From assembly GCA_900175165.2 (NCBI GenBank), contig FWWN02000329.1:3722-49139 (forward strand): a stretch of 45,418 nt of DNA. The letters are read 5' to 3'. The DNA comes from Rhizomucor pusillus. Its lineage: Eukaryota; Mucoromycota; Mucoromycetes; Mucorales; Lichtheimiaceae. Shown in pieces: positions 6,907 to 44,226 of this stretch. A program made the position numbers and the translations under genes. A model generated the notes under the pieces. It was given only the letters and a program-made list of their open reading frames with translations. It was not told where the DNA came from and searched no databases. Every line of letters starts with the position of its first letter. Within the stretch, counting starts at the first letter, position 1.

Positions 6907-9790
6907 ATGCGGTTTTCAAAGTATTTTGACAAAGAATGCATCCCAGAATGGAGAAAAGCCTACGTAGATTATCAAGCTCTTAAACGCCAACTCATGCAGA
7001 TTAAAGCTGTAAGTAAAATTTGCAGCGAGATCGTTAACAACGGAGCGCTGACACATGGTGAAAGGCCACAGCAGAGCCTCAGCCACGCCGATTCTCGCGA
7101 CGAGAGCAGACTATGCGAACGCGTCGAGCCACGCTTACGTCCGATGACGAGTTGGACCGGCCCACACAGACTCTGAACCGTCTCTATGCACAGGGAAGCG
7201 AGGAGGAAAAGCAATTTGTCGGTATGCTTAATAGCGACCTGAAACGAGTCTCCAGCTTTTACAACGGCAAGTGGCCAGGATACCTCTCTTTTTCTAAGCA
7301 AAAAAAAGTTTCTTAATGATTCCCTTTTAGAGAAAGAAAAAGAGTGCAAGGAAAAGCTACGTGCTTTGCGCAATCAAGTAGAAATCGTAGAGGATTACGG
7401 ACACGCGGTGTCTGCGCTGCGGGTATGATATTCTCTTTCTTGTTTTTGAAGATGGAAAAAATGAAAGAACTTTATACGATCAACGAGTATAGTTAGAGGA
7501 CAAGCGCAGCAACTTGTTTTTCCGGTGGTTCAGTCCTATCCTCTCCTTAGCACCGCGACTACTGCCTCGTTGGAAATCGGATCATTTGCGACATCAAGTA
7601 AATATACAAACGAACGATATATCTGCACTTGTTAGAGTAAAAAGCTCACCGATATTATCTCGCATTCAGATGGCGAAAAACCGTCTGAAAACAGCAATCG
7701 TCGAGTTCTATCGGGAACTCACGCTACTGAAATCGTTCAGGGCAAGTAGCCATGAGTTTCTGAAGATTCTATGCGTTACTGATGCATAAATAAATTTGAA
7801 TAGTCTCTCAATTACGAAACATTAGAGCATATAATCAAGAAATTCGAAAAGGCAGATGGATTACGAGTACTTTTGTATGTATCAACCGCTAATTTCATGC
7901 ATTTCAGGTTGCTGGATGGAAAGTTGGCGAAGAGTACATGGATAAAATCAAACGATGCCACTGGTGCAGAAGCAAGGGTCTAGATGAGCTCGCAAGCGCC
8001 GCGGAGGAGCTATTTGTACGCGAATTTTACAGAGGCAACAAAGAGTATGGATTACGAAAACTACAGGCACAGGAAGAAGAAGAGGTAAGTTTATGGTTGT
8101 AACAGAAAAGCCGATGCTGGTTATTCATTTATTGCAATCTTTCAGAACCATACATCAACAGCGTGGCGTGTAGGCGCTTACATAGGTGCATCCATTCCAT
8201 TGCTTTTTGAAAGCTTTGCAATAGGTAATAAGTTTGCACAGACCAGGGCCAAGTTGACGATATGTGCTAATGTATAAATCCAGTCCAAACTTTTCCAAGT
8301 GACATGGAACCGATACCCCATCGTCACTTCCATGTCCAGATCTACGCGTGCTTCGTCGTCCCTATACTATTTATTCTCGGTGTGTCCGTCAACATGATGA
8401 TCTGGAAACAATATCGGATCAGTTACAAGTTCATTTTTGATTTGGATGTGCGCAGCAATCTTGACCACCGCGAATTTGCAGAGGCAGGTGTTGTGAAGAA
8501 AAAAAGGTGCATGACTGATCTGTCTAAATGGAACGATTTAGCTTCCGGCATTCATGCTCTTTCTCTTATCGCTGTGCATGTATCTCGACTTTTCACAGAC
8601 TCTGGAAAGATTTATTCCTTCACACTTCTATCCACTTTTACTCTTTACGCTCTTGATGAGCATACTTTTATGCCCAGCCAATATATTTTACCGCAAAGCT
8701 CGCAGATGGCTATGTATTTCTCTGGTAACGTTGAATGTTATAAGACTAATGACTGGACACGGGCTGGTTGACGTTGTACATCGCTCCTAGGCTCGCATAA
8801 CGATGAGCTATTTATTGCCGGTGCAATTCCGTGATTTCTTCATTGCCGACGAGCTCAACAGTCTCTCCTACTCTTTCTGGACGTTTTCGTATTTTGTCTG
8901 TGCGTACACACAAAACTGGGCAGAACTGGGTATGTAAAAAGGAAGAACAGCTGTTTGTGAGTCGGTGCGTGCTGGATGTGCTTTATTTACTACTAGATAC
9001 TCGCTGCCACGTAACGCATATGTGGATCACACCGTTTCTGGCGTCTCTGCCACCGTGGTGGCGCTTTCTGCAATGCATACGGCGGTATCAAGACTCGAGC
9101 GAGGACGTGCATCTAGTCAACGCGTTCAAGTATGTCAGCACCATCGTTGCTACATTCGCAACGGGTATCTGGAGGTTTCACTGTAAGTTGTCTGATGCAT
9201 TGCCTGCATCACTTTGCTGAAAGAAAAACAATCTTTGATTTGTAGCCGCGTCGCCTATGATGGATTTGGTGTGGATACTGACATCCATGGTGAACTCTAC
9301 GTATACGTCTATATGGGATATCCGGATGGATTGGGGTTTGCTGCAATCGACAGACACTACCGCTCAGCATTTCCTGCTACGTCCAAACCTTGTCTTTCAG
9401 CCGTGGGTTTACTACATAGCAGCCGCTGTCAACATTATCCTGCGATTTGCATGGACACTCAATGCAGCTGGCCTCACCTTCCGCAGCGACGCACTGAACC
9501 TGATAACTGCTCTTTTGGAAGCTTACAGACGTTTACAATGGAACGTGTTTCGTCTAGAGAACCAGCATCTGGATAATTGCTCAAGCTACCGCGCGATCAA
9601 CGAAATCCAGCTACCATTTGCTACCGCTGCTCCTGCGCCCGAGGACGAAACAATAAGGAGGAGGCCGCGCATACCAAGCATGCGGGTATCCAAACGCCCA
9701 TCATATTACGGAGGGCGCGACTTTGAAGGCACGAGCGACAGAGAACAGGAAGATGCCGGTGCTGAAAGTGATGTGTCCGATGATGCATAA
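6907..9790 (+). CDS. SYG1: SPX-EXS phosphate exporter, SYG1/XPR1 family
   Basis: Thirteen exons give 714 residues: 6907..7008, 7065..7266, 7331..7422, 7493..7597, 7670..7741, 7804..7866, 7908..8084, 8146..8224, 8284..8483, 8542..8724, 8791..8929, 8997..9182, 9246..9790. The N-terminus MRFSKYFDKECIPEWRKAYV is a textbook SPX start; SPX continues through FYNEKEKECKEKL to KKFEKADG. Then come hydrophobic helices and the EXS domain, with PVQFRDFFIADELNSL, PWWRFLQCIRRYQDS, HLVNAFKY and WDIRMDWGLL. XPR1 homologs export inorganic phosphate; SPX senses inositol pyrophosphates. Introns 2 and 5 use GCAAGT donors. Intron 9 is unclear: GC donor at 8484, or GT at 8493 adding three residues. The exon 2 start (7065 or 7077) is also uncertain. 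The tail is acidic and phosphosite-rich. AATAAA at 9848. Confidence 0.9.
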
Positions 9791-9871
9791 CAAAGCTTTT
9801 TTTGTGTATATACATAGGTATTTAAAGAAAAAAGTATAGAAGAGCAAAATAAATTACAGAGATTATTATTT

Positions 9872-43300: not shown

Positions 43301-44226
43301 AAAACAATATACCTTCTGTTTCTTAGGGCAAGAAGGGCTGTAGCACGGAAATTGGGTCACAGCGCACAACGGAGTATAACATCGAGTGAATTCCGTAAAT
43401 ACACCGTTGGGAAATAGATCGATATCCTGCCGTCTCAGCGATGCAAAGGTAACGTAAGGATCATAATTCTGACGACTATGGCTGACATGCAACGATGATG
43501 AGCTATCGTGGTCGCTGGGACTGTCAGAGCCACTAACGGTTAACGTTCCAGATGATTGTGCATTGAGGCACAGGGCAGAAATGAACTGCTCGTGGAAACA
43601 ATAGGATTCAGCGTCGCTATCTATCAGTCTTCTCTCGTAGACAACATCGTGGAAGAGTCGCTGGTATTCCAATGCTCGGCCGAGGCGCAGCGCCAGTCTT
43701 CTATCTTGGATGCGAGCAATATTCATGAGCTTGTCCTACCATCCAGCCTTCTTTTTCAGCCAAAAAGCTGCATGCATTAAGGATTTACAGACACGACGAT
43801 ACTTGCCACAATTTCTCGACCATTGCAAGGTCTAGGTTCGATTCCAGTTTCACTTGAATTTTGTGAGGCACATTGTTGCAACAGCTCCAATGCGACAACA
43901 GACAACAAAGCAGGGTATAATGCTTGCATTGAGCGACGTCTACGCGGTGCATCGGGACGTGCGCCGGTGTTGTCGATGCCGTTCACTACGATGGATGGTG
44001 GAGAGTTCCGGCCATGTTCGCTATCCCTGTATAAATGGCGCATACTCAGGGTCGAGTATGTGCTTCTGCTGTTGTTACTGATTGAGCGACGCAAGCTATT
44101 ATTCAAGAAGCTGTCTAGCCGATGGTGAGAACGGTGATTGGCATCGGCTGCGGTTGACATGTGCACTGGAGAAGAAGGTGGCGCGGATTGCCGACCGAAC
44201 CGTCGCTGAACGATATCTATCGTCAT
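40364..44226 (-). CDS. ROM2: Rho1 guanine-nucleotide exchange factor, Rom2/Rgf type
   Basis: Eleven exons: 43807..44226, 43313..43735, 43020..43247, 42659..42955, 42318..42590, 42095..42262, 41614..42040, 41004..41546, 40807..40941, 40596..40744, 40364..40537, giving 1078 residues. The order is the Rom2 order: Ser/Arg-rich N-terminus, DEP-like domain (about 120-230; IQDRRLALRLGRALEYQRLF), Dbl-homology GEF (about 320-550; RKRQEAIFEVIQTEDYFVRDM, GYLSRPITRTGQYSLLLEKV), PH (about 555-735) and citron-homology domain (about 745-1065; QYILSTDHGIYVGH, PQGEHLLCYDEFAFFID, IIRGTDIKCLTHHSTYKSPL). It loads GTP onto Rho1, driving beta-glucan synthesis and the cell-wall-integrity kinase cascade. Introns 1 and 8 have GCAAGT donors; for intron 8 a weaker GT donor 10 nt upstream also keeps frame. 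The start is the first ATG of the open frame, so an upstream exon is possible. Confidence 0.93.

What the first reader, a model, noticed from the sequence alone, without database searches (positions are those of the whole stretch)
7267..43806. Eight GC-AG introns, all with the same GCAAGT donor, in six unrelated genes
Introns at 7267-7330 and 7742-7803 (SYG1-like), 15130-15200 (CorA-like), 20568-20628 (Cys-rich protein), 32888-33074 (PPZ), 39204-39271 (ketopantoate reductase), 40942-41003 and 43736-43806 (Rho GEF) start with GCAAGT. In seven cases the phase rules out the nearest GT, and family-conserved residues join cleanly across the splice. That is 8 of about 54 introns, roughly 15%, whereas GC-AG introns are generally around 1% in eukaryotes. 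All eight differ from the ideal GTAAGT only at position +2, consistent with the known rule that GC donors need strong U1 pairing elsewhere. This suggests a lineage with relaxed or actively used GC donors, possibly weak or regulated sites.
Basis: partly seen in the sequence, partly recalled or inferred. Interest (0 to 1): 0.75.

Follow-up and report, generated by a model that had tools for sequence, protein, structure and literature searches.

The report
GC-AG introns unusually common in fungus
In this fungus-like genome roughly one intron in fifteen to twenty seems to begin with GC instead of the usual GT, nearly always inside an otherwise perfect start signal (GCAAGT), which is several times the usual rate but is a kind of intron already known.

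Summary
All eight GCAAGT donors are where stated, and a gene finder trained on this genome chose the same eight when offered GCAAGT. Protein homology covers seven of the eight junctions; the Cys-rich gene rests on frame and a signal-peptide-like start. The feature is not local: in 20 stretches of 17 other contigs 15 of 282 called introns (5.3%, CI 3.0-8.6) start with GCAAGT, against about 1% in annotated fungi. The window, 8 of 49, is a high draw (p = 0.011). In the training sample GCAAGT was called 22 times, 14 control dinucleotides before AAGT 9 times together; the 40 kb holdout alone (1 call) does not decide.

With GC open in every context, 23 of 85 donors matching AAGT fully are GC, 0 of 117 with three matches, 2 doubtful of 95 with two. 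GC donors prefer an exon-final G (17/23 against 19/62). Among G|GYAAGT donors 17 of 36 are GC, near the C share of intron pyrimidines (38%). The U1, U6 and U1C read look canonical. Best reading: +2 C is near-neutral where U1 pairing is otherwise perfect. No RNA evidence; species unknown.

The parts
7267..7330 (+). GC-AG intron, SYG1/XPR1-like SPX gene (ACG|GCAAGT..TTTTAG)
   Evidence: called (margin 8.5); junction SSFYN^EKEKE lies in an ungapped SPX stretch aligned to PHO1 homologue 9ik4 (that stretch alone has i-Evalue 0.07); Pfam SPX 122 bits for the joined protein
7742..7803 (+). GC-AG intron, same SPX gene (AGG|GCAAGT..GAATAG)
   Evidence: margin 6.7; junction LLKSFR^SLNYETL aligned without a gap to 9ik4
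15130..15200 (-). GC-AG intron, CorA-like transporter (AAG|GCAAGT..CTGCAG)
   Evidence: reads YLGDVQ^DHLITML, aligned without a gap there to CorA 2bbj; Pfam CorA 131 bits; my model took the acceptor at 15147, margin 2.7
20568..20628 (+). GC-AG intron, apparently secreted Cys-rich protein (GTC|GCAAGT..CTCCAG)
   Evidence: joins a signal-peptide-like start at 20468 (MKTQICLVLSLML..CISTC) to LQTAHDCVQACP in frame; no Pfam match; margin 0.1; an unspliced frame is also open
32888..33074 (-). GC-AG intron, PPZ-type phosphatase (CCT|GCAAGT..TTTTAG)
   Evidence: joins DIFLSQP^ALLELSPPVK, aligned without a gap to 5jpf; margin 6.1
39204..39271 (+). GC-AG intron, ketopantoate reductase (AAG|GCAAGT..CTGCAG)
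   Evidence: margin 11.8, the highest of the called GC introns; junction FVPDQ^VVNS aligned without a gap there to 3i83
40942..41003 (-). GC-AG intron, CNH domain of a Rho GEF (GAC|GCAAGT..CATTAG)
   Evidence: the joined piece matches Pfam CNH over 10-253 of 255 positions, 132 bits (alignment not shown); margin 6.5
43736..43806 (-). GC-AG intron, DEP domain of the same Rho GEF (GTG|GCAAGT..TGGTAG)
   Evidence: DEP 34.3 bits with the GC junction against 24.4 with the in-frame GT junction at 43788; margin 1.9
7852..7907 (+). doubtful ninth GC intron (AAG|GCAGAT..TTTCAG), not counted as shown
   Evidence: called with margin 0.4; the alternative is a 41-base intron with donor GTACTT at 7867 that adds five residues

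Best explanation
These are ordinary major-spliceosome introns whose second base is C instead of T. In this genome the change is tolerated, close to neutrally, wherever the rest of the donor pairs fully with U1 snRNA at +3 to +6 (AAGT), best with an exon-final G as well. GT and GC then exchange by mutation at such sites, so GC fills about a quarter of GYAAGT donors and about half of G|GYAAGT donors, which makes about 5-7% of introns, by extrapolation some 2,000 in the genome. U1 itself is unchanged: the C sits opposite A as a single mismatch in an otherwise strong duplex. Shown here: the donors, their rate in a sample, their context rule, and canonical sequences of the U1, U6 and U1C genes that were read. 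Inferred: that they are spliced as drawn, near-neutrality, and GT to GC as the direction.
For: Control by dinucleotide in the 204 kb training sample: GCAAGT called 22 of 292 introns, score gain 137 nats; 14 other XXAAGT classes 0-2 each, 9 in all, gains up to 5.9. With every context open at equal prior, 17 of 18 GC calls were GCAAGT and the gain was 103, against 2-10 calls and gains of 3-23 for the others. Rate: first sample 14 of 244, holdout 1 of 38, window 8 of 49; high-margin set 15 of 187, outside the window 10 of 157. Context, GC open at 6% in any context plus the GCAAGT class: 23 GC of 85 with AAGT, 0 of 117 with three matches, 2 of 95 with two; without the class 18 of 81, 0 of 119, 2 of 95. 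GA, CC and AC opened the same way gave 13, 8 and 11 calls, 0-1 of them in AAGT. Sensitivity: 182 of 210 non-AAGT GT introns would still be called if scored as GC, and 54 of 55 GTAAGT introns if scored as the GC class. Exon-final G 17 of 23 for GC, 19 of 62 for GTAAGT, p = 0.0005. U1 duplex energy of GC donors is like that of GT donors without AAGT (median -5.9 against -6.25, p = 0.33). GC share of G|GYAAGT 17 of 36, CI 30-65%, spans the 38% C among intron-body pyrimidines. U1 5' end ATACTTACCTG, U6 ACAGAGA, U1C aligned to human. Junctions outside the window: DHR1 SADQ^RAGRAGR, Mgm101 ASEL^WDPVF, and a sugar transporter (Pfam span).
Against: No transcript data. The sample is about 1% of the genome. 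In the holdout alone GCAAGT was called once and the 14 controls 9 times together (0-2 each), so by count it does not stand out there; only its score gain does (10.2 against at most 4.9), and 1 of 38 is compatible with 1%. A pure free-energy threshold does not explain 0 of 117 at three right-side matches, so a further check of +3 to +6 (U6 or Prp8) must be assumed. GC donors pair less strongly than GTAAGT donors (p = 0.013). The annotated 1% for fungi may itself be low, because predictors may skip GC (PMC5677156 passage).
Confidence: 0.76

Rival explanations
1. The genome has the usual 1% of GC-AG introns and the window is a lucky cluster.
For: The window is above the rest (8 of 49 against 15 of 282, p = 0.011); the holdout gave 1 of 38, with controls as frequent per dinucleotide.
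Against: 15 of 282 outside the window against 1% gives p = 2e-7, and 10 of 19 outside loci with called introns hold at least one; in the larger sample the controls are near zero.
Confidence: 0.05
2. GC donors here are regulated sites, kept by selection for alternative splicing or intron retention.
For: GC donors are enriched in alternatively spliced genes in human, nematode and Arabidopsis (stated in PMC2490688).
Against: U1 duplex strength like that of GT donors without AAGT; lengths divisible by three not enriched (4 of 22 against 20 of 56; 7 of 23 against 21 of 62); they sit in mixed genes such as PPZ, DHR1, Mgm101, transporters and an SF3b130-like gene named by eye. All indirect.
Confidence: 0.1
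3. The spliceosome of this lineage has changed so that +2 is read loosely, by a variant U1, U1C, LUC7 or U6.
For: The GC share in the best context is far above what I recall for human.
Against: The one U1 match has the canonical 5' end; U6 is canonical in the two copies read of six matches; U1C aligns to human; GC is confined to AAGT, while GA, the control with the largest gain (23), gave 13 calls of which none in AAGT. Not examined: Prp8, U5, modification of U6; LUC7 matches lie at one locus, not read.
Confidence: 0.12
4. Artefact: wrong frames, pseudogenes, sequence errors or C-to-U editing make GT look like GC.
For: No RNA was seen; three window cases have margins under 3 nats, and one (20568) also has an open unspliced reading.
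Against: The same hexamer at 23 called sites, conserved domains across junctions, and no comparable signal for other dinucleotides in the larger sample. Editing of just +2 C in AAGT contexts has no precedent known to me.
Confidence: 0.05

Closest known systems
GC-AG U2-type introns of fungi and other eukaryotes (fungal mean 1.009%, PMC7072748)
   Same: GC donor, AG acceptor, the rest of the donor closer to consensus (PMC2490688)
   Different: About 5-7% here; 17 of 18 GC donors are GCAAGT with every context open, while 56 of 270 GT donors have AAGT
GC-AG-rich algae: Aureococcus 39.6%, Micromonas pusilla 22.2%, Chlorella 7.7% (PMC3033335 passages)
   Same: GC-AG far above 1%
   Different: The first two genomes have 69.5% and 65.9% G+C and Chlorella lies between; this sample has 45%
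GC-AG introns of euascomycetes (Rep et al. 2006; title and one quotation seen, paper not read)
   Same: GC-AG introns in fungi that automated annotation missed
   Different: A rate near 1% there is recalled, not seen
GA/GG donors of the copepod Eurytemora affinis, about 12% (PMC5714493 abstract and opening)
   Same: A lineage with a raised non-canonical donor share, found through gene models
   Different: There GA and GG; here GC in a perfect context

Membership tests
U2-type GC-AG introns | GC at +1/+2 and AG at the 3' end | tested here: met
U2-type GC-AG introns | rest of donor closer to consensus than in GT introns | tested here: met
   with GC open in any context 18 of 20 (or 23 of 25 with the class) have AAGT, GT donors 56 of 270; -1G 17 of 23 against 19 of 62 in GTAAGT; -2A no different, 12 of 22 against 27 of 56
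U2-type GC-AG introns | removed by splicing at the drawn junctions | not testable with these tools
   no RNA data; homology and frame only
U2-type GC-AG introns | about 1% of introns in fungi | tested here: not met
   15 of 282 outside the window, p = 2e-7 against 1%; a typical rate, not a defining rule; holdout alone 1 of 38
U12-type introns | RTATCCTT-like donor (motif recalled) | tested here: not met
   donors are GCAAGT
U12-type introns | U12 snRNA in the genome | tested here: inconclusive
   no match, but the control rang nowhere, so absence is not shown
Lineage with altered U1 | U1 5' end complementary to the unusual donor | tested here: not met
   single U1 match, canonical ATACTTACCTG; 41 of 395 candidates were scored, so a divergent copy could be missed
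Regulated GC introns (C. elegans let-2 type) | GC needed for regulated splicing | not testable with these tools
   only indirect: lengths and duplex strength

The most novel reading that the evidence does not exclude
In this lineage U1 pairing strength is under stabilising selection, and +2 C serves as an attenuator of over-strong donors: G|GTAAGT is depleted (19 seen, 42 expected from independence) while G|GCAAGT (17) brings duplex energy back to the level of ordinary donors. GC would then be neutral or mildly favoured in the strongest context, not a tolerated defect. Pooling GC and GT still leaves the context short (36 seen, 58 expected), so GC fills only part of the gap.
Probability: 0.18. 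Interest if true: 0.62.

Novelty: new member of a known kind. Interest (0 to 1): 0.42.

Why it matters
Gene predictors that forbid or penalise GC donors would misannotate a large share of genes here: 19 of 92 gene models with at least 300 coding bases carry a called GC intron, two doubtful introns included. Biologically, a genome in which C and T at +2 look interchangeable in one strict context gives a natural measure of how far U1 pairing can replace the GT rule, and makes neutral against regulated accumulation of GC introns testable by comparing relatives.

Tried and rejected
Word statistics of donor plus branch site plus acceptor in 204 kb separated GT or GC only poorly from other dinucleotides, so I built a gene finder instead.

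In some searches the model was offered GC only as GCAAGT, so '22 of 22 AAGT' there is so by construction and is not used as evidence; the context rule rests.

Not claimed.

Variant U1: rejected for the one copy found. LUC7: matches at one locus only, not read. A paper on LUC7 classes of donors was sought; the one paper listed was not opened.

The species was not identified: no relatives are held, and the one close protein found (P0001, 92% identity) carries no name. Its first 90 residues are a mechanical reading through the intron; the ATG that could start such an unspliced frame in the window is not a methionine there.

GC-AG in these fungi: 'GC-AG' with 'Mucoromycota' 0 papers; with 'zygomycete' 2, one of which reports one GC-AG intron in Rhizopus oryzae; the 15 listed of 1,667 held no GC-AG. 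Other searches were seen as listings, with passages or parts of some papers opened. I make no wider claim that a high rate is not in print; subscription journals and supplements were not searched.

Rows dropped before counts: genes under 300 coding bases, gene models overlapping a longer one by more than 60 bases, L016 (466 bases), L001 and L019-L021.
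Full report
What was claimed. Eight introns of the window start with GCAAGT, in six genes, about 15% of introns. The window lies in a 24.45 Mb genome of 353 contigs that is held without a name. Introns, a U1 gene and gene content show a eukaryote; Mgm101, a PPZ-type phosphatase and a DEP/CNH Rho GEF suggest a fungus. The phylum was not tested.

Are the donors real? I wrote a gene finder (frame-specific coding model, donor, branch and acceptor matrices, intron lengths), trained it with GT donors only on the window plus fetched stretches, and retrained it with all 16 dinucleotides allowed, the 15 other than GT at 0.5% each and the donor matrix still from GT introns (GC 14 of 290, six others once each). 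It was then offered one further dinucleotide at a time at 5%. GC was called 18 times in 292 introns, 17 of them GCAAGT, with a score gain of 103; the 14 others gave 2-10 scattered calls with gains of 3-23 (largest for GA) and 3 calls in the context NNAAGT altogether. With each XXAAGT as its own class, GCAAGT was called 22 of 292 times with a gain of 137, and the 14 controls 9 times in all from 1,487 sites, gains at most 5.9. At that rate about one of the 22 would be false (my estimate).

Homology across junctions. PPZ DIFLSQP^ALLEL against 5jpf, ketopantoate reductase, SPX twice, CorA, CNH (Pfam span) and DEP (34.3 bits with GC, 24.4 with the in-frame GT). The Cys-rich gene has no family; its splice joins a signal-peptide-like start to the Cys-rich body, but an unspliced frame is open too. 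Outside the window the GC junction splits the helicase motif SADQ^RAGRAGR of a DHR1 homologue and ASEL^WDPVF of Mgm101 without a gap.

Rate. Stretches fetched from other contigs (17 of 20 asked existed; L016 was too short to use) gave 14 of 244; four further stretches, not used for training, gave 1 of 38. Outside the window together 15 of 282, 5.3%, CI 3.0-8.6; in all 23 of 331, 6.9%. In the set with a margin of at least 6 nats it is 15 of 187, outside the window 10 of 157. The window is high (8 of 49, p = 0.011), as expected of a window chosen for this. The holdout speaks less clearly: one GC call (gain 10.2) against 9 calls over 14 controls (gains at most 4.9), in only 38 introns. GCAAGT occurs 18,310 times in the genome; with 23 of the 187 sampled sites called as donors (158, 29) that extrapolates to roughly 2,000 GC-AG introns.

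Context rule. With GC open at 6% in any context plus the GCAAGT class, the number of matches at +3 to +6 gives 23 GC of 85 with four, 0 of 117 with three, 2 of 95 with two, 0 of 34 with fewer; without the class 18 of 81, 0 of 119, 2 of 95, 0 of 35. The two exceptions, GCAGAT in the window and GCAAAG in L023, have margins of 0.4. The gap is not a blind spot of the method: 182 of 210 non-AAGT GT introns would survive being scored as GC. Within AAGT, exon-final G marks GC donors: 17 of 23 against 19 of 62, 12 of 15 against 16 of 41 in the high-margin set; in the set of 56 introns with margins of 10 or more the numbers are too small (4 of 5 against 8 of 13). So 17 of 36 G|GYAAGT donors are GC, against 6 of 49 with another last base. 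GT donors show a trade-off: -1G in 189 of 244 donors without AAGT and in 19 of 62 with it.

How it most likely works. The U1 found has the standard 5' end, so +2 C faces A as one mismatch. GC donors reach about the computed duplex strength of GT donors without AAGT, and less than GTAAGT donors. This fits a pairing threshold, but the absence at three of four matches asks for a second check of +3 to +6, which I assign, as inference, to U6 and Prp8. In the best context the C share (47%, CI 30-65) spans the neutral expectation from intron bodies (38%).

What is known. Fungi average 1.009% GC-AG in annotations (PMC7072748, passages and section 3.1); one yeast there has 6.67% major non-canonical sites. 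The rule that GC donors are otherwise closer to consensus is established (PMC2490688, first of two parts of the text read), and its authors themselves call neutral fixation in a strong context, followed by recruitment, the more plausible scenario. Very high GC-AG shares occur in G+C-rich algae (PMC3033335, passages). This sample has 45% G+C, so that explanation does not carry over. Predictors that skip GC (PMC5677156, one passage) may make the fungal 1% too low.

Verdict. Confirmed observation, corrected rate, known kind of intron, unusual share, and a clean context rule worth testing in transcripts.

Noticed in passing
36897-36970 (+): a tRNA gene, the only Rfam match in the window at gathering threshold
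   Followed up: no
7852-7907 (+): a possible GC donor in a weak context (GCAGAT) in the SPX gene; the rival is a 41-base intron with donor GTACTT at 7867
   Followed up: partly
L023 7365-7427 (-): the one GCAAGT intron of the holdout lies in a long gene that looks like the splicing factor SF3b130/Rse1 (named by eye from the translation)
   Followed up: no
whole sample: GT donors show a strong trade-off between exon-final G and AAGT at +3 to +6 (19 of 62 against 189 of 244)
   Followed up: partly
G000: U6 matches at six places, four over the cut-off; the two that were read (L019, L020) have near-identical gene bodies
   Followed up: no
about 20468-22229 (+): Cys-rich, apparently secreted protein with no Pfam match; its only listed database relative (P0001, 92% identity) comes from an unnamed 4.4 kb contig
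   Followed up: partly
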